Shown here piece by piece: positions 14,957-57,192 of a stretch of DNA of 64,000 nucleotides. The position numbers and the translations under genes were made by a program. This stretch comes from Lachnospiraceae bacterium (GTDB taxonomy: Bacteria > Bacillota > Clostridia > Lachnospirales > Lachnospiraceae). Below the pieces are notes generated by a model that ran no database searches, was not told where the DNA came from, and saw only the letters and a list, made by a program, of their open reading frames with translations. Numbering within the stretch: position 1 is the stretch's first letter; each line of letters opens with the position of its first letter. Location of the stretch: assembly GCA_029008875.1 (NCBI GenBank), contig JAQXJP010000035.1, positions 310,001 to 374,000 of the forward strand, given 5' to 3'.

Positions 14957-16243
14957 CTATGCTCTCGGCTTGCCACAGTTGCTGCAGAACTTGCCGCTGT
15001 TCACGGTGCCGCATTCGCAGGTCCAGTCAGCTGCCGGTGCCGGCTTGCCGCACTCACTGCAGAACTTACCGGTATTCACGGTTCCGCACTCGCAGGTCCA
15101 TGTTCCGGCTTCTGCCGGCTTGGATTCTCCGCAGTTACTGCAGAATTTGCCGGTGTTCACGGTTCCGCACTTGCAGGTCCAACCTGCTGCCCCTGCCGTA
15201 GCAGCTCCTGCCACTACCGCTCCTGCCGCAGGTGCCTGTGCTGCCTGAGCAGCCTGCTGTGCCTGAACGTTCTGTCCCATCTGGTTCAGACTTCCCATCA
15301 TGTTGCCCATGGCGCCAACGCCCATTCCAACACCCATGAATCCGGTCATTGCACCGGCAGAGTTGGAGCCTGCTGCCTTAACACCTTCAGACATATTCTT
15401 AACCATATATCCCTGAGCAACACCCGGATCGGAAAGCATTGCGCCCTCGTTTCTGGTATTGATAAGCTCCTGTGACTTCTCGTCGTAGGACGGGATGACA
15501 CCAACTGCCTGGATTTCCATACCACGCATCTGGTTCCATTCCTCATCCAGGGTATGAGCCATGTACTGTCCAACCTCACGAGCCTTGCTGCTGAGGAAGG
15601 AAATGCGAAGTCCGTCCGCAGACATCTGGTTGATGGTTGACTGCAATGCCTCCAGGAATTCGGTAGAGTACTGCTCGTTAATGTCAGTGAAATCTACATG
15701 ATCCGCATTCTTCGGAATTGCCTCCGCATAGAACTGAAGCGGGTTTACAATCTTGACAGAGTAGGTTCCGTGTACGCGGATAAACAACTCTGCATTGTAG
15801 AATGTATCAAAATAGTTGATTGGATTGCGGGTGCCAAACTTGATTCCCTTAATCTCCTGCAGATTAATGAAAAACACCTTCTGCTTGGTCGGTGTCTGAC
15901 CGCCGAAGCCGATACGTCCCCAAGCGTCCTTCAGGGTGTCACCAAACTGACCGTTAAAGAGGGATGGGAGGGATGAATTATCCACCTTGTAATATCCCGG
16001 TTCCGCGGTGTAGTCCACAACCTTGCCACCGTCCACAAGCATCATGAACTGATTGTCATATACGTGAATGATGGAACCGTTGCTGACGGTGTCAACCGTT
16101 CCCTTTGTATTCTGTCCACGGCGAATCATAACACCCTGTGCAAAGACTGTCTGATCCCCCATATTGTCAGCTTCAATAACCTCTTTCCAAGAATCAGCCA
16201 GTGTTCCGCTGATACCTTGCCCAATTGCCTTAATAATTCCCAT
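14957..16243 (-). CDS. SPFH-domain protein with C-terminal zinc ribbons (YdjI-like)
   Basis: The 428-residue protein has an SPFH/virion-core-like domain over about residues 20-285, followed by a Gly/Met/Ala/Gln-rich linker. Three tandem zinc ribbons end the protein, each with a C-x-CGTVN-x-GKFC-x-x-CG pattern. This resembles Bacillus YdjI, which acts with YdjG/YdjH and PspA in membrane stress. The next gene upstream encodes a membrane protein with a Tim44-like domain and zinc ribbon, as in that system. Start is ATG behind GGGAGGATACTT. Membrane-associated scaffold function is inferred from family knowledge. Confidence 0.88.
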   Translation of the reverse strand: MGIIKAIGQGISGTLADSWKEVIEADNMGDQTVFAQGVMIRRGQNTKGTVDTVSNGSIIHVYDNQFMMLVDGGKVVDYTAEPGYYKVDNSSLPSLFNGQFGDTLKDAWGRIGFGGQTPTKQKVFFINLQEIKGIKFGTRNPINYFDTFYNAELFIRVHGTYSVKIVNPLQFYAEAIPKNADHVDFTDINEQYSTEFLEALQSTINQMSADGLRISFLSSKAREVGQYMAHTLDEEWNQMRGMEIQAVGVIPSYDEKSQELINTRNEGAMLSDPGVAQGYMVKNMSEGVKAAGSNSAGAMTGFMGVGMGVGAMGNMMGSLNQMGQNVQAQQAAQAAQAPAAGAVVAGAATAGAAGWTCKCGTVNTGKFCSNCGESKPAEAGTWTCECGTVNTGKFCSECGKPAPAADWTCECGTVNSGKFCSNCGKPRA

Positions 16244-16295
16244 AAGTATCCTCCCTATGTATGAAATCTACTGTTTTTCGCGCTTTTTGCACGGT

Positions 16296-17075
16296 CTACA
16301 TATGATTATAATCTACTTCATAAAATTTGTGAAGAGACCAAACCTTAATATTTAGTGGTACAATTCCTGAACCACAGAACTCACAATACATGTTTCCGAT
16401 GGTTTTTACCGGTGCTCCGCAATGGGGACATATGGTTCCCATCGCATTGTCAAACTCCACCGCATCCGCATCCTGGATGTAAATCAATTCAATATTGTAT
16501 TTTGTCTGGGTCTTGCGTTCCTTGGTCCCTGCTATGACTTTTCCATTCTGCTCCCTGTAAAAGTCATAGCCCACGGAGCTTTGTATGGTAATCATACATT
16601 TTCCACCGGCATGGCGGTAGTTTGCAATTTCCGTCCGGTGAATCTGGATATTTCCGTAATACTCCTCAATCTGGGCTTCACGGTTGTCGTCGATTCTTGT
16701 CTGAATCTGCTGCCGCACATCCTCCGACGCGTCGGGAGTCAGTTTTCCCAAATCCTCCGTCCCGATTGCAATCAGGGCAGAGGTCAACATATTCTCCGCT
16801 TTGTGACGGAATTCATCCCAGTTGAAATCCGGAAAATCCCGGCGAATCTGGGGTTCCATCAGGGTGGTCATCCCGTTTACGGATTTGGGGGTCTCCGCCA
16901 GCACGTCGGCCTGATTGCGGATTCCCTCCACCAGATCCGAGGTCCCGAACATGGCTCTGGAGATGGAGCGCACCTTGTTTCGCGCCACATTGATTCCATA
17001 TGCCGCTGCCCCTGCGACCCCGAGGATCACAACCGCAAGCACAATCAATCCGATTCCTGTCATATTGCTACTCAA
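16296..17075 (-). CDS. Membrane protein with Tim44-like domain and zinc ribbon
   Basis: One N-terminal membrane segment (IGLIVLAVVILGVAGAAAY) is followed by an amphipathic stretch, then a Tim44-like domain around residues 80-215 and a zinc ribbon (CPHCGAPV...CEFCGSG). It is probably the functional partner of the downstream SPFH protein. The start is uncertain: the track GTG at 17084 directly touches the GGAGG; a TTG at 17075 lies 8 nt from it and is chosen; an ATG at 17063 is 20 nt away. The gene start overlaps the end of prfB. Confidence 0.78.
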   Translation of the reverse strand: MSSNMTGIGLIVLAVVILGVAGAAAYGINVARNKVRSISRAMFGTSDLVEGIRNQADVLAETPKSVNGMTTLMEPQIRRDFPDFNWDEFRHKAENMLTSALIAIGTEDLGKLTPDASEDVRQQIQTRIDDNREAQIEEYYGNIQIHRTEIANYRHAGGKCMITIQSSVGYDFYREQNGKVIAGTKERKTQTKYNIELIYIQDADAVEFDNAMGTICPHCGAPVKTIGNMYCEFCGSGIVPLNIKVWSLHKFYEVDYNHM

Positions 17076-18208
17076 CGTCGTCACCTCCCATGTTATCCGG
17101 ACAGCCCAGAGATAGCCACTTCAGGTATCCATTGATAAAACAGTCGATGTCGCCATCCATCACCGCATCCACATTGCCGGATTCCACACCGCTTCGGCGG
17201 TCCTTCACCATAGTGTACGGTTGCATGACATAGGAGCGAATCTGGTTGCCCCAGCCAATCTCCGTAACCTCGCCGCGGATACCGGCCGCCTTGGCAGCAT
17301 TTTCCTCCTGCTTCAGCAAGAACAGCTTTGCCTTGAGCATCTGCATGGCTTTATCTTTGTTCATATGCTGGGAGCGCTCATTCTGACACTGCACCACGAT
17401 TCCGCTGGGGAAGTGGGTGATTCGGATTGCGGAGGAAGTCTTGTTGATATGCTGTCCCCCGGCTCCGCTGGAGCGGTAGGTATCAATACGGATATCCTCG
17501 TCCCGAATCTCAATATCCACATCCTCCTCAATGTCCGGCATCACATCGCAGGAGACGAAGGAGGTCTGTCTCTTGCCGTTCGCGTTGAAAGGCGAGATGC
17601 GCACCAACCGGTGCACTCCTTTTTCCGACTTTAGATAGCCGTACGCGTTTTCCCCGTTGACCTGAAAAGTGATGGACTTGATTCCCGCTTCGTCCCCGTC
17701 CAGAGAATCTAGCACCTCAAGGGTAAAGCCCTTCTTGTCCGCCCATCTGGAATACATGCGGAAAAGCATCTGCGCCCAATCGCAGGACTCGGTTCCCCCC
17801 GCCCCCGCATGCAGGGACACGATGGCATTATCCTTGTCGTACTCGCCGGACAGCAGGGTTTTCATACGGATGCTGTCGTAGGTGGAAGTAAACTCTACAA
17901 GCATCTCCCCGATTTCCGGGATCAGCGACTCATCGTTCTCTTCGTACCCAATCTCAATCATGGTGAGAATGTCGTCATATTGCTGCTCTAATGAAGCATA
18001 TGTGGCCACATCGTCTTTCATGCTTTTTAATTCTTTCATCTTGGCCTGAGAGGTAGCCGGATCGTTCCAAAAATTGGCATCCTCCATCTCCCGCTCGAGT
18101 TCCTGGATTTTTTGTTCTTTGCTTACCAGGTCAAAGTGAATCCCTCACTTCCTGCAGCGGGGTCTTGTAAGTCAAGAGCTCACTTTTATAGTTATCAAGT
18201 TCTACCAC
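17068..18208 (-). CDS. prfB: Peptide chain release factor 2, with programmed +1 frameshift
   Basis: RF2 ends translation at UGA and UAA. The main ORF has the SPF anticodon-like tripeptide (RISPFNANG) and the GGQ catalytic loop (SSGAGGQHINKTSS). The track ORF lacks the true N-terminus. A short upstream frame starts with GTG at 18208 (behind GAGGTGATT), encodes 25 codons ending DSL, and meets CTT-TGA-C at 18131-18136. A +1 shift at this site joins it to DLVSKEQKIQELE. The full product is about 379 residues, and the joined CDS skips the base at 18133. This is the classic autoregulatory frameshift. An AGGG lies upstream of the slip site, a weaker stimulator than the usual AGGGGG. Confidence 0.95.
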
Positions 18209-28729: not shown

Positions 28730-28920
28730 AATTTGTCATCACTTTCCGTTTTCATGGGTTTCTTCCTTAATTATATATCACACTTTGCTTTCCATTTTCA
28801 ATCCTTGTGTGTCGAGATTTTTATCTTCCTATTTGCTATAAATTTTGCTATAATATCAGCGTGTATACTTTTTTACACGTAGTACTTTAGAAAACAATAT
28901 TGATTGCAAGGAGGCCTAAT

Positions 28921-31509
28921 ATGAATTACGGCAAAAAAGCCACCAGGCAGCGGGAGGCAAAACTCGACGCCAGGGGCAAAAAGATTCGTAAGAAATTCGG
29001 CGTATTCTTCGGCAAGGCAGTTTTGGTCTGCCTCCTGCTTTTGGCAGTTGTGGGAATCAGCTCCGGCATCGGCGTTTGGAAGGGAATCGTAGATTCCGCT
29101 CCTGATATATCTGCAATGGATGTAACACCAACCGGCTACTCTACCACCGTCTATTCCAGCGATGGAACAGAGATCGCCACATTGGTTGCATCCGGCGCGA
29201 ACCGTAAGTATGCCACCATCGATGAAATCCCGCTGGATATGCAGCACGCATTTGTTGCGATTGAGGATTCACGATTCTACACCCACAACGGTATAGATCC
29301 AAAGGGTATTGTCCGCGCCGCGATCTCCGGTGTGGCAAACGGATTTCATTTTAATCAGGGTGCCAGTACCATCACCCAGCAGTTAATCAAGAACTCCGTT
29401 CTTGAGAGCAACTGGACCGGAGAGTTGTCCGGCAAGAGTTCCAAGCTGGAAAAAGTCCAGCGTAAGATTCAGGAGCAGTACCTGGCTGTGGAGCTGGAGA
29501 AAAAAGTCAACAACAAGGACTGGATTCTGGAGAATTATTTGAACACCATCAACCTGGGCAACAATACCCTGGGTGTTCAGGCCGCATCCCTCCGCTATTT
29601 CGGCAAGGAAGTCTCTGAGTTAAATCTGTCCGAATGCGCGGTTATCGCGGGAATTACCAAGAATCCATCCGCGTACAACCCGATTTCCCATCCGGACAAG
29701 AATGCGGAGCGCCGCGAGCTGGTACTGAATGCCATGCTGGAGCAGGGCTATATCACCCAGGCGGAGTACGACGAAGCCATGGCGGACGATGTGTACGACC
29801 GCATCGCCAATTACAACGCGGACTACATCGATGACGGCAACACCAACTCTTACTTCACCGACGCACTGATCGACGATGTGTATCAGGATTTGATTGATGC
29901 GGGATATACCAAGGCGGAAGCCTCCAAGCTTCTGTATCAGGGAGGTCTGTCCATTTACTCCACACAGGATCTTGCGATTCAGCAGATCTGCGACGAGGAG
30001 GTAAATAACCAGAGCAACTATCCCACCGACCCGAAGTATTCCTTCAGTTTGTATTTCCAGGTGCAGAAGGCGGATGGCACGCTCAAGACCTACACCCACC
30101 AGAGCATGCTGGCCTACTATCAACAGTCCAACTCGAAATACAATATCAATTTCAGCACCGAGGAAGCGGCATTGGAAGCCATCGCGCAATTTGAATCCGA
30201 CATCCTCGAGGAGGGCGACAGCATTATAGAGGGAAGCGAATCCATCGCCATCTCCCTTCAGCCCCAGGTTGCAATGACCGTTATCGACCAGTATACCGGA
30301 GAGGTTAAGGCATTGGTTGGCGGCCGCGGAAGCAAAGCGGGAAACCGTACCTTAAACCGTGCGACGGATACCACAAGACAGCCGGGATCCACCTTCAAGA
30401 TTATCGGTTGCTACGCCCCTGCACTGGATGCGGGCGGGCTTACACTTGCGTCCGTGCAGGACAATGCACCCTACACAGTTGGCACCAAAACATTCAAGAA
30501 TTACAATGACGAATATACCGGCTACACCACCGTGCGCCAGGCGATCACCCAATCCATCAACATTGTGACGGTGAAGACACTGGAGCAGATCGGTGTGGAC
30601 TTGGGTTATGAATATGTGGAGAAATTCGGTATCTCAACCCTGTGCGAGGATGATCGCAACCTTGCACTGTCCCTGGGCGGACTTACCAACGGTGTCACCA
30701 ACCTGGAGCTCACCGCAGCCTACGCAACAATCGCCAACGGCGGTGAATATATGGAGCCCAAATTCTACACCGTGGTGTACGACCACGATGGCAACATTCT
30801 GTTAGACAAGCGTGATACCCAGGAGACCCATGAGGTATTGAAAGATACCACCGCCTGGCTTCTCACCAGCGCAATGAGCGATGTTATGGTTGCCGGAACC
30901 GGTACCAGAGCTTACTTCGGAGCTTCCATGCCACAGGCCGGAAAGTCCGGTACCACCACAAGCAACCGCGATGCCCTGTTCGCAGGCTACACCCCTTACT
31001 ACACCTGTGTTGTATGGGGCGGAAATGACGACAATGCCGTTCAGGCCGGCAGCAACACCACCTACCCGAAAAACATCTGGCGTGAGACCATGAAACGAAT
31101 TCACGCAGACCTGGAATACAAGGAGTTTGACAAGCCGGCAGGCATCACCACCCAGGTGGTATGTAACCAATCCGGACTGCTGCCGATTCCGGGTGTCTGC
31201 GAGGCAGACCCGAGAGGCTCCACCCTTATCACCGAATATTTCGACATCGAGAACATGCCGAAACCGGAGGACGAAGTTTTCGGAGATGTGTATTGTAACC
31301 ACCATGTGGCTCTGGATATCTGTACTTCATCGGGGCTCATCGCCGATTCCGGATGTCCGCAGGATCAAATCCAGCGAGCAATTTATCTGGTCGGCTTATC
31401 CGAGGGTTCCACAGCCTACTCCATGAACGCACCTCAAGAATTCTTGGATGCGCGATGCAATGTCCACGGAAGTGGCTGGAACTGGATCTGGGACAATCTG
31501 AACGATTAG
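28921..31509 (+). CDS. Class A penicillin-binding protein (PBP1A type)
   Basis: A bifunctional peptidoglycan synthase of 862 residues. A basic cytoplasmic N-terminus and one membrane helix (about 31-53) are followed by glycosyltransferase 51 (AIEDSRFYTHNGIDPKGI with the catalytic Glu, and QGASTITQQL). The transpeptidase domain has SxxK in QPGSTFKIIG, SxN in QSINIVTVK and KSGTT. The C-terminus is Cys-containing (CEADPRG, CNHHVALDICTSSGL). Start is ATG at 28921 behind AAGGAGG; the ORF track uses a TTG seven codons upstream. It stands alone with a terminator. Confidence 0.95.
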   Translation: MNYGKKATRQREAKLDARGKKIRKKFGVFFGKAVLVCLLLLAVVGISSGIGVWKGIVDSAPDISAMDVTPTGYSTTVYSSDGTEIATLVASGANRKYATIDEIPLDMQHAFVAIEDSRFYTHNGIDPKGIVRAAISGVANGFHFNQGASTITQQLIKNSVLESNWTGELSGKSSKLEKVQRKIQEQYLAVELEKKVNNKDWILENYLNTINLGNNTLGVQAASLRYFGKEVSELNLSECAVIAGITKNPSAYNPISHPDKNAERRELVLNAMLEQGYITQAEYDEAMADDVYDRIANYNADYIDDGNTNSYFTDALIDDVYQDLIDAGYTKAEASKLLYQGGLSIYSTQDLAIQQICDEEVNNQSNYPTDPKYSFSLYFQVQKADGTLKTYTHQSMLAYYQQSNSKYNINFSTEEAALEAIAQFESDILEEGDSIIEGSESIAISLQPQVAMTVIDQYTGEVKALVGGRGSKAGNRTLNRATDTTRQPGSTFKIIGCYAPALDAGGLTLASVQDNAPYTVGTKTFKNYNDEYTGYTTVRQAITQSINIVTVKTLEQIGVDLGYEYVEKFGISTLCEDDRNLALSLGGLTNGVTNLELTAAYATIANGGEYMEPKFYTVVYDHDGNILLDKRDTQETHEVLKDTTAWLLTSAMSDVMVAGTGTRAYFGASMPQAGKSGTTTSNRDALFAGYTPYYTCVVWGGNDDNAVQAGSNTTYPKNIWRETMKRIHADLEYKEFDKPAGITTQVVCNQSGLLPIPGVCEADPRGSTLITEYFDIENMPKPEDEVFGDVYCNHHVALDICTSSGLIADSGCPQDQIQRAIYLVGLSEGSTAYSMNAPQEFLDARCNVHGSGWNWIWDNLND

Positions 31510-31606: not shown

Positions 31607-34468
31607 TTACTCCCACAAGTCTCCCCACACAGTGTCACACAGATCAACCGCATATTCATAGGAAAAGGCAGAATCCTGATCGGCAATCCGATTCTGCGCG
31701 GCAAGCTCCGCTGTGTAATCGGACAAATTGTAGGTGGTAACCCCGCCAAATCCATCGCTGACATGGCAAACCAGGGCTTTTACCCCGTAGTCTGTGATGA
31801 CGGCATTGCCATCCCCGTCACGGCCGATGGTAACCTGCGCCATTCCTCCCACCATGCGGTTGGCTGTTCCTGCCCCAGTTCCCGATGTCCAGTTCACAAA
31901 ATTCCCGAGAGAATAATAAACCAGCATATCATTGCCGCTTTCCTCCTCGTGAAACCACTCAATGGGTTCAATCACATGGGGATGGGTTCCGATAACCAAA
32001 TCCGCTCCGTTCTCTGCAAAAATCTGTGTCCACTTTCTCTGCATGGAGTCCGTGCCCAGATTGTACTCGGTTCCCCAATGGGGACAGACAATCGTAAAGT
32101 CCGCCAGTTCCTCCGCGTGCTGCAAATCTGCCACAACCGCATCCTCCCGGAGCAGTTCCACGGCGTATGGCATATCCGACGGCAATTCGATTCCATTGGT
32201 TCCGTAGGTGTAATTCAATATGGCAATCTTGATTCCGTCCTGCTCATAGATAAAGAGATTATCCCGGTCCTCCTCACTGCCGTGAATTCCAAGCACAGCG
32301 ATATCCGGATAGTTCTGGTCCCAGAAATTGACACAATTTACAATCCCGCTCTTGCCCCGGTCCAGGGAGTGATTGGTACCGTGACAGATCACATCAAATC
32401 CGCTCTCCACCAATTCATCACCGATTGCGTAAGGGGCATTAAACGCAGGATAACCGGACACCCGAAGCTCCTCCCCTCCGATGATGACCTCCTGGTTTAC
32501 CAAAGCCACATCCGCAGCCTCGATCTCCTCCCTTGTATGAGCAAATATGGCGGAGAAATCGTATTCCCCACCATCGGTTCTTGCACTCTCTTCCACCGGA
32601 TCGTGGAGCAAAATATCCCCCACCATAATCAAGGTCACTTCCTCAGGTTCATTGCCTTGGGTTACACCCTCCGCCGTCCCCTTCTCCGGCTCGACGGCTC
32701 CCCGGGTATCAACCTGGGCATCCTCATTCAGGTCCTCAACCATCTCCAATTGCACCGCCAGACCATCCTCCATGGTCACTGCCTTGATGCGAATGTAAAA
32801 GGGGGTATCCTCCGGTTCGTAATAGTATTCCTTCCACATTCCCAGGTAAGTGGGGCCGCTTATGTACATCATATATCCCGCGTCCGTGCAGGCATCACAG
32901 TACTGCGTCAGCGTATCCTCCGTCACCTCCATCCGATATCGATAGGTACGGGTCGTGACATCGTCCTTGCTGTCCACCAATTCCGCATCGGGCCACACCT
33001 CATCCGGCAGTACTGCCTCCTCGAAACACCGGTTCAGCAATTCCAGCTGATTCCTGCTCTCCTTGTAAACCGACAGCCAGTTGTCTTCATTTCCCGATTG
33101 CCGCTGTACCGTCAGAATATTGATTGCAAAAATCAGCAGATATACCAGGAGCATGGCTCCTTTTATGAGATAGTACCGATTCCATTTCCTCGGTATTTTT
33201 TCATATTTTCCGATGGTCCATCCGTAATTTGCGTAATCGAAGCGGGTACCGCAGTATTCGCAGGTGCTGCCCTCCAGAATGTTGATACTGCTGCCACAGC
33301 AATCACATTTGTACATTCGAATGGCGGACACCTTTTCCATGGCCACAGCCTCCCTGCATTCCAGAGAAAGCGCCACGTCCTCGTAAGCGGTTCGGATGCG
33401 GTCTTTTCGCAGCGTGGTAAGGCGAAGCCTTGCCACCGCGTCCATGAAGAACTTATCCTGCTTGTGGGATACTTGGGTGATTTTCAGGCGGGTCATATCA
33501 CAATCCACCACATCCTTATAGTCGGCCACAACATCCTGCAGGTTGCAGGTGGCAAAGGTCTGTATTCCCGGCCCTATATCTGTCAGGTGAATGCTGCGCA
33601 ATTTGTATTCCAGATTTTGAAAAAACTCCGTGCCGGAAAAATTCTTGATTTTTGCCCTTGCGTATTCACCTCCGGTAAGCACCTCCTGATTCAGCCCCCA
33701 CAGGATGATTCCGCTCACCAGATAAATCATCAAGAGGGCTATCAGACTCCGCACAGTGACCGGTACCGCATCCAGCGAGAATAAAAATGCAATCACCGTT
33801 CCGATAATCCCCATTCCGGAATCATGTCCCGAAGCCAGCATCAGAAAAATGACAAAGAACGTGACCGTACCCAGCAGGATAAATCCAACGGACAACAGCA
33901 ACAGCACCCTCATGGTGTTGAGCATGGTCTGAACGATTTTCTTGGGTATATTTTCCTCCATGGAGAATCCGGAGATCTTGGTCTCAAAATCATGCACCGA
34001 GAATTTGGTGCCGCAGGAATCACAGCCATCCGTAAAGCTGCTGACAGAGCCCACATATCCACAGTTGGGACAGCACACCTGTCCGTCCCGCACATCGGAT
34101 TTCAGAAACCGGGCCGAAAAAATCTCCTTCTCCTTTTTCCTATGTATGCGCTTGCCGTTTTTATAGTAGCTGTGACACGCAGTCACCTCGGAGCTCCATT
34201 TTCCCACAATATCCGCCCCGTCGGATTCCACAGAAATCTCCCCTTTTTTCCCTTCCGTCCGGCGCTTATCCTCTGTAAAAGTAACCTCCGCGGTCAGCCC
34301 CTTCTCCTGCAGTCGCTTCCGGCTCAATCTCATACTCTGCCAGAAGGGCTGCGTGGTCTGTTCCATCAGTTCCCGCTCATCCGCGTTCCCCATGAAAAAG
34401 GCATTCCGAACCTGGGTAAAGCCCTTCAATTTTTGATGCATTTCCCTTCGTATCTCTCTTTTGTCCAT
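31607..34468 (-). CDS. Zinc-ribbon / membrane / Tim44-like / CapA fusion protein
   Basis: A 953-residue multidomain protein. Approximate layout: basic N-terminus; zinc ribbon at 130-155 (CPNC...CDSC); two to three membrane helices (188-260); a Tim44-like region (280-375); a second zinc ribbon at 388-410 (CDCC...CEYC); another membrane helix (436-455); an ordered linker; an acidic linker; then a CapA metallophosphatase-like domain from about 610 (MVGDILLHDPV, GTNHSLDRG, GTHPHVIEPIEW, YSLGNFVN). CapA domains usually occur alone or with a signal anchor, as in the gene at 56 kb. Start is ATG at 34468 behind AAAAGGA. Substrate is unknown; the CapA part is probably extracellular. Confidence 0.85.
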   Translation of the reverse strand: MDKREIRREMHQKLKGFTQVRNAFFMGNADERELMEQTTQPFWQSMRLSRKRLQEKGLTAEVTFTEDKRRTEGKKGEISVESDGADIVGKWSSEVTACHSYYKNGKRIHRKKEKEIFSARFLKSDVRDGQVCCPNCGYVGSVSSFTDGCDSCGTKFSVHDFETKISGFSMEENIPKKIVQTMLNTMRVLLLLSVGFILLGTVTFFVIFLMLASGHDSGMGIIGTVIAFLFSLDAVPVTVRSLIALLMIYLVSGIILWGLNQEVLTGGEYARAKIKNFSGTEFFQNLEYKLRSIHLTDIGPGIQTFATCNLQDVVADYKDVVDCDMTRLKITQVSHKQDKFFMDAVARLRLTTLRKDRIRTAYEDVALSLECREAVAMEKVSAIRMYKCDCCGSSINILEGSTCEYCGTRFDYANYGWTIGKYEKIPRKWNRYYLIKGAMLLVYLLIFAINILTVQRQSGNEDNWLSVYKESRNQLELLNRCFEEAVLPDEVWPDAELVDSKDDVTTRTYRYRMEVTEDTLTQYCDACTDAGYMMYISGPTYLGMWKEYYYEPEDTPFYIRIKAVTMEDGLAVQLEMVEDLNEDAQVDTRGAVEPEKGTAEGVTQGNEPEEVTLIMVGDILLHDPVEESARTDGGEYDFSAIFAHTREEIEAADVALVNQEVIIGGEELRVSGYPAFNAPYAIGDELVESGFDVICHGTNHSLDRGKSGIVNCVNFWDQNYPDIAVLGIHGSEEDRDNLFIYEQDGIKIAILNYTYGTNGIELPSDMPYAVELLREDAVVADLQHAEELADFTIVCPHWGTEYNLGTDSMQRKWTQIFAENGADLVIGTHPHVIEPIEWFHEEESGNDMLVYYSLGNFVNWTSGTGAGTANRMVGGMAQVTIGRDGDGNAVITDYGVKALVCHVSDGFGGVTTYNLSDYTAELAAQNRIADQDSAFSYEYAVDLCDTVWGDLWE

Positions 34469-34591: not shown

Positions 34592-35491
34592 ATGGACAAT
34601 AATAATTTTAATTACCAACAGCCTCCATATCAGCAACCGCAGTACCAGCAGCCGCAGTACCAACCATATCAGCAGCCGGAACCTCCCAAGAAAAAGCAGG
34701 GATTGGCAATCGCTTCCCTGATTCTTGGTATCGTGGGATTGACCATCTGCTGTTGCATGGGAATCATCCCGGGAATCATCGGATTGATTCTCGGTATCAT
34801 CGCCGTAGCCTCCAAGCAGCAGGGCGGAAAAGGGATGGCAATCGGCGGAATTATCACTTCCGCTCTGGCGATTCTGGTCAATATCATTCTGATTGTGGCA
34901 ATGGTAAATGACGAGGACTTCCAGGAGGGATTCCGTGAGGGATTTGAGGAGTCTTACTATGAACAGACCGGAGAGCATTCCAGCTTCTACGAGGGTGACG
35001 ACGACTATTATTACAACGACGATTATGACCTGTACGCTTACACGGATGATGATGAGGATGATTACACCTCCTCCGGTGACCATTTCTGGGGAACCAATTA
35101 CACCTGCGGAGACGACTCAACCATCTATTTCTTTGCGGACGGCACCTTCGCCTGGTACCTGGATGCGGAAGATTGGACAGACAATATCAAGGCCGGAACC
35201 TATACCGTTGTATTCGGTGCGGATGCCAGAGAGTTGTTGACCACGGACCTGGCAGAATACGGTGTAACCGCCGAGGAGCTGGATGATTTTAATGCCAGAA
35301 ATGCCGGAAGCGAACTGTACAACGAGGAGAATCTTACGGTGCTGATTCTCAACACCGAAGAGGTCATCTTGGACGGGGAATATTATACCGATCCTTACAC
35401 CACCTACTACTATGGTTATTCCAATGAGGAAGGTTTTGACGGTGCCAACATGGACTCCGGCAACTACGCAACCTTCTACACCAATTATTAA
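34592..35491 (+). CDS. DUF4190-type membrane protein with acidic extracellular region
   Basis: A 299-residue protein. The first 35 residues are Gln/Pro/Tyr-rich repeats (PYQQPQYQQPQYQ). A two-helix DUF4190-like unit follows (GLAIASLILGIVGLTICC and a second helix near 90-112), then a very acidic Asp/Tyr-rich segment (DDDYYYNDDYD) and a folded C-terminal domain with FFADGTFAWYLDAEDW. True start is 34592 behind GAGGG; the ORF track start is 24 codons too long. The N-terminal tract is similar in style to that of the ctpA-like protease. Function unknown. Confidence 0.8.
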   Translation: MDNNNFNYQQPPYQQPQYQQPQYQPYQQPEPPKKKQGLAIASLILGIVGLTICCCMGIIPGIIGLILGIIAVASKQQGGKGMAIGGIITSALAILVNIILIVAMVNDEDFQEGFREGFEESYYEQTGEHSSFYEGDDDYYYNDDYDLYAYTDDDEDDYTSSGDHFWGTNYTCGDDSTIYFFADGTFAWYLDAEDWTDNIKAGTYTVVFGADARELLTTDLAEYGVTAEELDDFNARNAGSELYNEENLTVLILNTEEVILDGEYYTDPYTTYYYGYSNEEGFDGANMDSGNYATFYTNY

Positions 35492-35591: not shown

Positions 35592-37349
35592 CTACTCAAC
35601 GTCCTGAAGTGCAGCGACGTCTTCCTCTCCGGTACGTACCTTAACAACCTTGGCAACATCGTATACGAAAATCTTGCCGTCTCCGATGTGTCCGGTGTAA
35701 AGGGTCTTCTTGGCAGTTTCGATCACTGTCTCTACCGGAATCTTGCTTACCACAACCTCAACCTTAATCTTCGGAAGGAGGGTAGCATCCAATTCAGCTC
35801 CACGGTACTTCTCGCCGGATCCCTTCTGGATTCCGCATCCCATAACCTGAGTTACGGTCATACCGGTGACACCGAGTTCATTCATAGCCTTACGCAACTT
35901 GTCGTAACGGCTGAGCTTTGCAATAATAACCACCTTGTGAATACCGGTAGATGGTGTCATGCCGACACTGGAGACTACCGGAACAGCAGCACTCTTCTGT
36001 GCGTCGGAAGCAACTGCATAATCGTCTGTTCCAAGGTCTGTGTTCTCGTTGACATCCATGACATCGCCGGATACATCCATGATGGAGAAGCCTGCGTATG
36101 CAGATGGAAGACCATGCTCGGTTGCATCAAGTCCTGTGATTTCCTCTTCCTCGGAAACGCGAAGACCAAAGATTGCCTTAATTACCAGGAATGTTATGGT
36201 AATGGTAACTGCTGCCCATGCCAATACGCTGACAATACCGATGCACTGCAGTCCGAGAAGCTTGAATCCGCCGCCGTAGAAGAGACCTACCAGCTCATTT
36301 CCCCCTGCATCAGCAATAGCATATCCCGGAGCAGAGTTGGTTGCAAACAAACCTGTTGCGAAGGTTCCCCAGATACCATTCATAAAGTGAACTGCTACCG
36401 CACCAACCGGATCGTCGATGTGAAGCTTGTAATCCAGCAGCCATACGCCAAACACTACCAAAAGTCCTGCAACTGCACCAATCACGATGGCGCCAAAAGC
36501 ATCGGTAACATCACAGGGAGCGGTGATGGCAACAAGTCCTGCGAGGGATGCATTCAAACACATAGATACATCGGGTTTGCCGTATTTTACCCAGGTGAAA
36601 ACCATACATACAACGGTTGCTACCGCAGGAGCGATTGTTGTTGTTACAAAGATGGAACCAAGTTGCTCTACAGAAGTTGCAGCAGCACCGTTGAATCCGT
36701 ACCAGCCAAGCCAGAGGATGAAACATCCCAAAGCACCGAGTGCCAGGTTGTGGCCGGGAATTGCGTTAACCTTGATAATCTTGTCGTCCTTATCCTTGGT
36801 GAACTTGCCAATTCTTGGTCCAAGGAATTTTGCACCGATCAGAGCACACACACCACCTACCATGTGGATTGCACAAGAACCTGCGAAATCATGGAAGCCT
36901 ATCTGAGCTAACCAGCCGCCTCCCCAGATCCAGTGTGCTTCAATCGGGTAAATCAATCCGGAAATCACTGCGGAATATACGCAGTAAGACAGGAATTTTG
37001 TTCTCTCTGCCATTGCTCCGGAAACGATGGTTGCTGTGGTAGCACAGAATACCAGGTTGAATACGAAGTTTGACCAATCAAAGTTTGCATAGGATGTGAA
37101 GATATCAAATCCCGGCTTTCCGATCAAACCGACCATATCCTCGCCAAGCAAAAGGGAAAAACCGATCAGGATGAACATTACGGTACCAATACAGAAGTCC
37201 ATCAGGTTTTTCATCAAAATGTTACCGGTGTTTTTGGCACGGGTAAAGCCTGCCTCCACCATTGCGAATCCGGCCTGCATCCAGAACACCAGCGCTGCTC
37301 CGATTAAAAACCAGACTCCGAAAATTACTCCACTAATTTCTTCAGTCAT
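35592..37349 (-). CDS. amt: Ammonium transporter fused to a P-II signalling domain
   Basis: A 585-residue fusion. The Amt part (about 1-405) has eleven membrane helices and hallmarks such as FWMQAGFAMVEAGFTRAKN, HMVGGVCALIGA and DDPVGAVAVHFMNG, including pore-lining His residues. After a linker of about 70 residues, a P-II/GlnK-like domain spans about 475-585 (HKVVIIAKLSRYDKLRKAMNELG, LLPKIKVEVVV). In its T-loop YRGAE is followed by L where GlnB/GlnK proteins have the uridylylated Tyr51, so that modification is not possible. Start is at 37349 behind AAGGAGG. It lies downstream of the GSIII gene behind a terminator-like hairpin. Confidence 0.94.
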   Translation of the reverse strand: MTEEISGVIFGVWFLIGAALVFWMQAGFAMVEAGFTRAKNTGNILMKNLMDFCIGTVMFILIGFSLLLGEDMVGLIGKPGFDIFTSYANFDWSNFVFNLVFCATTATIVSGAMAERTKFLSYCVYSAVISGLIYPIEAHWIWGGGWLAQIGFHDFAGSCAIHMVGGVCALIGAKFLGPRIGKFTKDKDDKIIKVNAIPGHNLALGALGCFILWLGWYGFNGAAATSVEQLGSIFVTTTIAPAVATVVCMVFTWVKYGKPDVSMCLNASLAGLVAITAPCDVTDAFGAIVIGAVAGLLVVFGVWLLDYKLHIDDPVGAVAVHFMNGIWGTFATGLFATNSAPGYAIADAGGNELVGLFYGGGFKLLGLQCIGIVSVLAWAAVTITITFLVIKAIFGLRVSEEEEITGLDATEHGLPSAYAGFSIMDVSGDVMDVNENTDLGTDDYAVASDAQKSAAVPVVSSVGMTPSTGIHKVVIIAKLSRYDKLRKAMNELGVTGMTVTQVMGCGIQKGSGEKYRGAELDATLLPKIKVEVVVSKIPVETVIETAKKTLYTGHIGDGKIFVYDVAKVVKVRTGEEDVAALQDVE

Positions 37350-37367
37350 AATCTTTTCCTCCTTAAT

Positions 37368-37425
37368 AAAAAAAGCGACACATTTCCCGTTGGTCCACAG
37401 CTTCGTGGCTCGAAAAATGCGTCGC
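37368..37425 (-). terminator. Terminator or attenuator just before amt
   Basis: On the minus strand GCGACGCATTT pairs with AAATGTGTCGC (11 bp, one G-U) around an inner CCAC-GAAGCT-GTGG hairpin, then TTTTTTT. The run of U ends only 18 nt before the amt start codon, leaving no room for a separate promoter after it. Confidence 0.85.
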
Positions 37426-37453
37426 ATTTTATACTTTTTTCAAATTCCCAATT

Positions 37454-56043: not shown

Positions 56044-57192
56044 CTACTGTGCCGGAGACACAATCCCTCCGTCATCGATGGTGATTCCGAAGGAGATACT
56101 CTCCAGATAGCGGTAGAGGTCCGTGGTGGAAGCCTCGGACATAAGCTGCGTACAACCGTCCTTGGCATAGGCGGGAAAAACTCTCACCGTGGACTCGTTG
56201 TTCTCATCCACCGTCACCTGAACGGCCATGGTGGAATTGATGGTGGTGTTGAAGATAAAATTGCCCATGCCATAGAGGATTGGCTTGCCGTTGTAAAATT
56301 CAATCCCCTGCAAACAATGGGTGTGGGAGCCGATGACGAGATCCGCGCCCGCATCTATGTAATGTCTGGCCATGGTCACCTGATAATCCTGTGGCATGCT
56401 GTCCCGCTCGATTCCCCAATGAACATACACTGTAACATAATCACATTCCTGCTTCGCCTCGGTGATAGCGGCGCAAAGCTGGGTATCATCATAGGTACAG
56501 AACAAGCCGGGCTGCGCATTGTCCACATTCCAGCTCCCCTCCGGGATTACCCGGGATGCCGCCAGAAATCCGAAGGTTCTGCCGCCGGATTGGAAGGTCT
56601 GCAATTCCTTGGCACGCTCCTTGGTCTCTCCCGCACCGGCATACATAATTCCGGCATCATCCAATGTGGTAAATGTATCGGACAGGGCTTCCCTGCCATA
56701 GTCAAGGGCATGATTATTGGCAAGTGTTACGATATCTACGCCAAGCTCATGGAATGCCCCCACGTATTTGGGATCCACGCGGAAGGTATACTGTTTATCC
56801 TGTTTCACGCCCCCTGTGCTGAAGCAAAATTCGTGATTCACCATGGCGATGTCCGCATCGGTGAGAACCGCCCGAAGCTCCGGTGAGATTACCGCATCGA
56901 TGCCGCCGGCATCATACCGTTCAGGGAATCCGTAATCAAACAGCACATCCCCGGCAAAGGCCATTGTGACGTCCCGGGTTTCCTCCTGTGCATCCTGTGT
57001 ATCGCCGGTACTCTGGGACTCCTCCGGTCCCTGCGAGTTTTCCAAAAGTTCCTGTTCTGTGGCGGCGCTCTCCTGTCGGTTCACAACCTCCGCGTCCTCT
57101 CCCCCGTTCCACGGCTGAAACACGAACAGCCCCAGAACCACGGCAACCGCAAATAAACCTGCCACTATTTTCCATATCACACTACTGCGCAT
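56044..57192 (-). CDS. CapA family protein (metallophosphatase-like)
   Basis: The 382-residue protein has an N-terminal membrane anchor (IVAGLFAVAVVLGLFVF), an acidic Gln/Glu/Thr-rich linker, and a CapA domain with MAFAGDVLFDYGF, ANNHALDYGREAL, VHWGIERD, GSHTHCLQGIEFYN and GMGNFIFN. The domain is extracellular. Family members are named for polyglutamate capsule synthesis, but most have unknown substrates and no capB/capC genes are nearby. The same domain ends the large fusion protein at 31.6 kb. Confidence 0.92.
   Translation of the reverse strand: MRSSVIWKIVAGLFAVAVVLGLFVFQPWNGGEDAEVVNRQESAATEQELLENSQGPEESQSTGDTQDAQEETRDVTMAFAGDVLFDYGFPERYDAGGIDAVISPELRAVLTDADIAMVNHEFCFSTGGVKQDKQYTFRVDPKYVGAFHELGVDIVTLANNHALDYGREALSDTFTTLDDAGIMYAGAGETKERAKELQTFQSGGRTFGFLAASRVIPEGSWNVDNAQPGLFCTYDDTQLCAAITEAKQECDYVTVYVHWGIERDSMPQDYQVTMARHYIDAGADLVIGSHTHCLQGIEFYNGKPILYGMGNFIFNTTINSTMAVQVTVDENNESTVRVFPAYAKDGCTQLMSEASTTDLYRYLESISFGITIDDGGIVSPAQ

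What the first reader, a model, noticed from the sequence alone, without database searches (positions are those of the whole stretch)
31607..34468. CapA domain fused to a zinc-ribbon, multi-helix, Tim44-like membrane protein
One uninterrupted ORF joins two zinc ribbons, about four membrane helices and a Tim44-like region to a C-terminal CapA domain. The Tim44-like plus zinc-ribbon part resembles the small partner of the SPFH protein at 16.3 kb. This suggests a membrane-sensing module tethered to an extracellular phosphoesterase-like domain, an architecture I do not recognise.
Basis: partly seen in the sequence, partly recalled or inferred. Interest (0 to 1): 0.6.

Follow-up and report, generated by a model that had tools for sequence, protein, structure and literature searches.

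The report
One-off gene fusion carrying CapA domain
In one gut Lachnospiraceae genome, two genes that are separate in every relative examined (an uncharacterised zinc-ribbon membrane protein and a surface CapA enzyme normally held by a lipid anchor) are joined into a single intact gene, so the enzyme is now anchored by a multi-pass membrane protein: an unusual but lineage-specific fusion, not a new kind of system.

Summary
One 953-aa ORF (31607-34468, minus strand) joins a zinc-ribbon membrane protein to a C-terminal CapA domain (PGA_cap, E=1.2e-59). The architecture is nevertheless a one-off. Residues 1-583 match complete stand-alone proteins (587 aa, 43% identical, ending exactly at residue 583). 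The CapA part is 52-65% identical to stand-alone signal-peptide/lipobox lipoproteins in about 15 congeners. None of about 130 N-module ORFs elsewhere carries CapA. In 62 congeneric genomes only three CapA ORFs exceed 700 aa: this one and two MATE-CapA fusions of separate origin.

The fused gene and a DUF4190 gene form a ~4-kb insertion between PBP1A and an ammonium transporter, which are neighbours in relatives. The sites where relatives keep the two separate genes lack them here. Intact backbone on both sides argues against an assembly join.

AlphaFold (residues 1-585, pLDDT 83) gives two NTF2/Tim44-like + zinc-ribbon halves around a helix hairpin, a third transmembrane helix and an ectodomain. 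CapA would therefore lie outside the cell; its catalytic residues are intact. Best reading: a lipid anchor replaced by a polytopic anchor, with CapA still an ectoenzyme. Sensing or signalling is untested. New variant of a known kind; modest interest.

The parts
31607..34468 (-). Complete fused ORF, 953 aa
   Evidence: full-length match only in own genome
34097..34462 (-). Residues 3-124: first NTF2/Tim44-like half (three helices then a strand sheet), cytoplasmic
   Evidence: AlphaFold2 model, block pLDDT mostly 84-97 apart from 60s around residues 71-80; Foldseek NTF2-type hits; weak phmmer matches of P0002 to the equivalent region of some relatives
34004..34081 (-). Residues 130-155: zinc ribbon 1 (C133, C136, C149, C152)
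   Evidence: Cys invariant in 54 sequences
33830..33949 (-). Residues 174-213: transmembrane helix 1
33692..33811 (-). Residues 220-259: transmembrane helix 2 (hairpin with TM1; uncharged short loop, positive flanks)
33353..33673 (-). Residues 266-372: second NTF2/Tim44-like half
33239..33313 (-). Residues 386-410: zinc ribbon 2 (C388, C391, C403, C406)
33092..33178 (-). Residues 431-459: transmembrane helix 3, preceded by a K/R-rich stretch
32738..33088 (-). Residues 461-577: small alpha/beta ectodomain, shared with the stand-alone relatives in G016 and L082
   Evidence: ectodomain phmmer; pLDDT 76-94 in most blocks
32636..32719 (-). Residues 584-611: fusion point and acidic linker; the stand-alone N-module ends here (ILEDINE-stop) and the CapA lipoprotein signal peptide is missing
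   Evidence: alignment
31892..32635 (-). Residues 612-859: CapA (PGA_cap) domain with D618, N658, E660, N699, H700, D703, H797, E801, H829, H831 intact
31610..31891 (-). Residues 860-953: CapA C-terminal extension, conserved in the genus orthologues
34592..35491 (+). Divergent DUF4190 gene carried in the same insertion; a recurrent neighbour of the N-module family
28900..31509 (+). PBP1A gene, left backbone flank of the insertion
35592..37427 (-). Ammonium transporter gene, right backbone flank (directly follows PBP1A in many relatives)

Best explanation
The gene is a lineage-specific fusion of two ancestral genes. Gene 1 encodes an uncharacterised membrane protein: two cytoplasmic [NTF2/Tim44-like + zinc ribbon] units flanking a helix hairpin, then a third helix and a small ectodomain. 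Gene 2 encodes a CapA lipoprotein. The fusion kept gene 1 whole and dropped the CapA signal peptide and lipobox, so CapA is now carried outside the cell on the odd-numbered third helix. Shown by sequence or homology: the two parents, the exact fusion point, intact cysteines and catalytic residues, and the insertion site. Inferred: three-helix topology with CapA outside; CapA still works as a metal-dependent ectoenzyme on an envelope or extracellular substrate; the fusion changes how and where CapA is anchored, not its chemistry. What the cytoplasmic zinc-ribbon/Tim44 part binds is unknown; my best guess is a membrane-associated adaptor or scaffold like its SPFH-linked relative.
For: Stand-alone N-module orthologue of 587 aa aligned over 5-583 and ending there, with others in L082/G210 and G695. 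Stand-alone CapA lipoproteins 52-65% identical in about 15 congeners. No other N-module ORF carries CapA: 131 ORFs, some duplicated, and no other long frame containing CapA in family- or class-wide searches. Insertion between PBP1A and AMT, which are about 110 bp apart in relatives and 4.1 kb apart here. Native capA site (behind rsmI in at least 10 congeners) and the G016 N-module site are both empty in this genome. Active-site residues conserved in all aligned CapA and matching ligands/dyads in the MslH structure (PMC10406935). Topology: AF2 model and charge distribution. MATE-CapA fusions in two related genomes of the same genus also place CapA behind a polytopic protein.
Against: The fusion is known from a single metagenome-type assembly of 43 contigs, with no reads to inspect. 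Enzymatic activity and substrate of this CapA clade are unknown. The CapA part of the full-length model is low confidence (pLDDT mostly below 50, too few relatives allowed in the alignment), so the relative placement of the domains is not modelled. The CapA tree does not resolve which congeneric CapA was the donor.
Confidence: 0.72

Rival explanations
1. Functional (Rosetta-stone) unit: the ectodomain and CapA already work together in relatives, and the cytoplasmic zinc-ribbon/Tim44 part senses or recruits something and controls the ectoenzyme across the membrane.
For: The ectodomain directly abuts CapA and all parts are intact; fusions often join functional partners (general principle).
Against: The two genes are not neighbours in G016, the one congener with both (L035 versus L036). 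CapA is also fused to an unrelated MATE transporter, so it accepts different carriers. The N-module family has no consistent neighbour suggesting an envelope enzyme. Most N-module members lack the ectodomain.
Confidence: 0.15
2. Assembly or sequencing artefact joining two genes in frame.
For: Single MAG-type genome; homologues always split at this position.
Against: Both flanks of the gene are ordinary backbone shared with relatives, so a chimera would need at least two exact joins. The join is in frame, precisely at the natural end of the N-module, with a normal linker and no signal peptide. The genes are not adjacent in any relative, so a lost stop codon cannot explain it. Codon usage is normal in both halves.
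Confidence: 0.07
3. CapA here takes part in poly-gamma-glutamate capsule synthesis, as Bacillus CapA/PgsA does.
For: PF09587 is named for that role.
Against: No CapC/PgsC in the genome at the searched threshold, while the control rings in B. subtilis. The genome has four CapA matches.
Confidence: 0.03
4. The fusion is transcribed, but CapA is cut off in the linker and acts as a released enzyme.
For: Low-confidence, probably flexible acidic linker at 584-611.
Against: No recognisable cleavage site was sought or found; stand-alone relatives have a similar linker behind the lipobox.
Confidence: 0.08

Closest known systems
Stand-alone CapA lipoproteins (PF09587) of Agathobacter/Roseburia-type Lachnospiraceae, next to rsmI in many congeners
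   Same: 52-65% identical over 605-953, same active-site residues and C-terminal extension
   Different: They carry their own signal peptide and lipobox; here these are replaced by a 583-residue membrane protein
Uncharacterised double zinc-ribbon, double Tim44/NTF2-like membrane proteins (e.g. the ORF in CAMDYX010000021, 587 aa; JAFQLS010000014, 584 aa)
   Same: Whole length 5-583 aligned, 43% and about 31% identical, same eight cysteines, hairpin, third helix and ectodomain
   Different: They end at residue 583; no CapA
Tim44 (PF04280) + zinc-ribbon partner of the SPFH protein at 16296-17084 in this window
   Same: Tim44-like unit followed by a zinc ribbon; hhalign probability 90% to the second half
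   Different: One unit only, one N-terminal helix, no hairpin, no ectodomain, no CapA
MATE-CapA fusions in G027:C18 and G020:C7
   Same: CapA fused in frame to the C-terminus of a polytopic membrane protein, in the same genus
   Different: Different carrier (MatE) and the CapA lipobox-like segment is kept as an extra helix; separate event
Lasso-peptide epimerase MslH (PDB 8gq9, 8itg; PMC10406935)
   Same: Calcineurin-like CapA-type fold and matching Asp/Glu/Asn/His/Asp residues
   Different: Scores far below the epimerase family cut-off (29 against 700 bits); no lasso context

Membership tests
CapA / PGA_cap (PF09587) | Profile match over the domain | tested here: met
   E=1.2e-59, 612-859, 202 bits against cut-off 27
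CapA / PGA_cap (PF09587) | Conserved metal/catalytic residues of the calcineurin-like site | tested here: met
   D618, N658, E660, N699, H700, D703, H797, E801, H829, H831 conserved in all aligned CapA sequences; N/H/D and the GTHPH histidine align with MslH
Poly-gamma-glutamate synthase complex (PgsBCA/CapBCA) | CapC/PgsC present in the genome | tested here: not met
   No match, B. subtilis control positive
Poly-gamma-glutamate synthase complex (PgsBCA/CapBCA) | CapB/PgsB present in the genome | not tested
   CapC absence was taken as sufficient
MslH-type peptide epimerase (NF038314) | Score above the equivalog cut-off | tested here: not met
   29.3 bits against 700
Tim44 family (PF04280) | Profile match above gathering score | tested here: not met
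   No Tim44 hit for the ORF at E<=1, and Tim44 not among the 25 commonest families for 54 relatives
NTF2/Tim44-like fold | Helices followed by a curved antiparallel sheet, structural match to NTF2/Tim44-like domains | tested here: inconclusive
   AF2 pLDDT 83; Foldseek probability 1.00 and target TM about 0.58-0.72 to ARC6/PARC6 intermembrane domains, but no E-value <=0.001 on the multi-domain chain
Double zinc-ribbon membrane protein family (unnamed) | Two CxxC...CxxC ribbons flanking a helix hairpin | tested here: met
   Eight cysteines invariant in 54 members; hairpin 174-259
SPFH-Tim44 partner system | Adjacent SPFH/Band 7 gene | tested here: not met
   The fused gene has PBP1A and DUF4190/AMT neighbours; the SPFH pair is 15 kb away

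The most novel reading that the evidence does not exclude
The double Tim44-like/zinc-ribbon protein is a transmembrane scaffold whose cytoplasmic zinc/lipid-responsive halves control envelope enzymes through its ectodomain, and the fusion exposes CapA as one such client enzyme, giving a first functional handle on a widespread uncharacterised family.
Probability: 0.1. Interest if true: 0.6.

Novelty: new variant of a known kind. Interest (0 to 1): 0.33.

Why it matters
The fusion itself is a rare natural experiment: a lipid-anchored CapA enzyme re-anchored on a polytopic protein, paralleled in the same genus by MATE-CapA fusions. That indicates CapA acts at the outer membrane face and tolerates, or gains from, changed anchoring. 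It also draws attention to a widespread (Lachnospiraceae, Oscillospiraceae, Acidaminococcaceae, Erysipelotrichaceae, Treponema), structurally distinctive membrane-protein family that no Pfam or NCBIfam model searched here covers.

Tried and rejected
Viral-contig scans with a junction pattern, the CapA part and the N-module alignment found no relatives. Phage and plasmid records match the CapA part in every row listed. PADLOC defence models: no hit. Terminal repeats around the insertion: no repeat pair bounds the insert, so no sign of a transposon; G+C is unremarkable. Duplication of the N-module tested profile-against-profile: 95% probability with the zinc ribbons included but nothing without them, so the duplication rests on structure and on the P0002 matches, not on that test. 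A first CapA tree left out the fused sequence by mistake and was redone (placement unresolved). Literature searches for CapA in Lachnospiraceae and for SPFH/Tim44/zinc-ribbon proteins gave nothing on this family. Full-length AlphaFold gave no usable CapA fold.

Full report
OBSERVATION. The ORF 31607-34468 (minus strand) is complete and encodes 953 aa. Both halves have codon usage like the neighbouring genes. Pfam finds PGA_cap/CapA at 612-859 (E=1.2e-59) and nothing above threshold in residues 1-611. The genome is 2.63 Mb in 43 contigs. So the window comes from an Agathobacter/Roseburia-type Lachnospiraceae.

THE TWO PARENTS. A search of 60 relatives splits the protein cleanly. Residues 5-583 match a 587-aa protein in G016 (43% identity) that ends 'ILEDINE-stop', which aligns with residue 583. 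Residues from about 580-605 to 953 match stand-alone CapA proteins of about 400-430 aa in about 15 congeners and one genome of another family (52-65% identity). Where read, these start with a lipoprotein signal peptide and lipobox (e.g. MKKRMLALCLFGVMCVSTLTAC) followed by an acidic linker. The fused protein keeps the first parent whole and enters the second within its linker, losing the signal peptide.

HOW RARE. I collected N-module relatives from the genus, from 397 genomes of the family, from 391 of the class and from GTDB contigs. Of 131 ORFs matching the N-module profile (some loci fetched twice), only the window gene also matches CapA. The reverse survey, CapA (PF09587) in 62 congeners, gave about 150 matches. 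Only three lie in frames over 700 aa: this one (957) and two of 844/847 in G027 and G020. Those two are MATE transporters fused to CapA with a lipobox-like segment kept in between. CapA has therefore been joined to the C-terminus of a polytopic protein at least twice in this genus.

WHERE IT SITS. In many congeners the PBP1A gene and the ammonium transporter gene are convergent neighbours, about 110 bp apart in the two I read in detail. Here they are 4.1 kb apart, and the space holds the fused gene and a divergent DUF4190 gene. The usual capA site behind rsmI (at least 10 congeners) holds no capA in this genome or in G016, and the G016 site of the N-module gene is also empty in this genome. 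Since both outer flanks are ordinary backbone, a misassembly would need two precise joins plus an in-frame one; I put that at 7%. No terminal repeats mark the insert. A DUF4190 gene also lies beside N-module genes in L105, L106, L119, L135 and near the one in L082, so gene 1 may have arrived with its usual neighbour. That is inference.

ANATOMY. In 54 family members eight cysteines forming two zinc ribbons are invariant. AlphaFold2 of 1-585 (54 sequences, pLDDT 83.1, pTM 0.68) shows helices plus a strand sheet (3-124), ribbon 1, a long helix hairpin (174-213, 220-259), helices plus a sheet again (266-372), ribbon 2, a single helix (431-459) and an alpha/beta ectodomain (461-577). The best Foldseek hits are NTF2-type domains: ARC6/PARC6 intermembrane regions (probability 1.00, target TM about 0.58-0.72), plus a VirB8 homologue and a mitoribosomal subunit chain. 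E-values stay above 0.001, so the fold assignment is good but not decisive. The window's own Tim44+zinc-ribbon protein next to the SPFH gene (P0002; Tim44 E=1.3e-11) aligns with the second half by hhalign (probability 90%) and picks up about 30 family members by phmmer, in some through both halves. A direct profile comparison of the two halves is significant only because of the ribbons, so an internal duplication is likely but not proven.

TOPOLOGY AND ACTIVITY. Three helices, an uncharged hairpin loop and K/R-rich segments before helices 1 and 3 put the ribbons and Tim44-like halves inside and the ectodomain and CapA outside, the side where the lipoprotein CapA also lies. All residues conserved across CapA relatives are present: D618, N658, E660, N699, H700, D703, H797, E801, H829, H831. 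In the CapA-type epimerase MslH the corresponding Glu44, Asn87, His259 and His261 bind the metal, and His88/Asp91 and His295/Asp11 are catalytic dyads (PMC10406935; partial alignment, where NHxxD and the GxxPH histidine match directly). The protein scores far below the epimerase family cut-off, so the same chemistry cannot be assumed. A poly-glutamate role is unlikely because CapC is absent.

MECHANISM. Most likely the fusion changed only the anchor: a metal-dependent surface enzyme that was lipid-anchored is now the outermost domain of a polytopic protein. Whether the cytoplasmic part regulates it is open. The two genes are not linked in G016 and CapA also fuses to a MATE carrier, so the Rosetta-stone inference is weak (15%).

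VERDICT. Real, intact and unusual, but a single-lineage fusion of a known domain with a widespread unnamed family: a new variant of a known kind, interest 0.33.

Noticed in passing
L200:870-3404 (G027:C18) and L201:1340-3874 (G020:C7): 844-aa in-frame MATE transporter-CapA fusions in two related genomes, with a lipobox-like segment between the domains.
   Followed up: partly
loci L100, L108, L112, L113, L117, L118, L120, L131: Two members of the double zinc-ribbon/Tim44-like family lie close together on the same strand, suggesting paired paralogues.
   Followed up: no
window 34592-35491; L105, L106, L119, L135, L082: A DUF4190 membrane-protein gene recurs beside or near the N-module gene.
   Followed up: partly
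window 14957-17084: SPFH (Band_7_1) protein with three C-terminal zinc ribbons next to a Tim44+zinc-ribbon protein, which itself overlaps the end of an ORF I recognise as release factor 2 (prfB; from memory).
   Followed up: partly
L040:6435-7736 (own genome C4): A second, shorter paralogue of the N-module (433 aa, no ectodomain) next to an ORF resembling a (p)ppGpp synthetase and a GGDEF-type protein (assignments by eye).
   Followed up: no
phage records MT839863, MT838454, KT429161 (hits H11, H12, H15): CapA genes occur in temperate Staphylococcus phages and in gut phage records, 35-40% identical to this CapA.
   Followed up: no
window 56044-57192: A stand-alone CapA paralogue (382 aa) in the same window; about 27% identical to the fused one.
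   Followed up: partly
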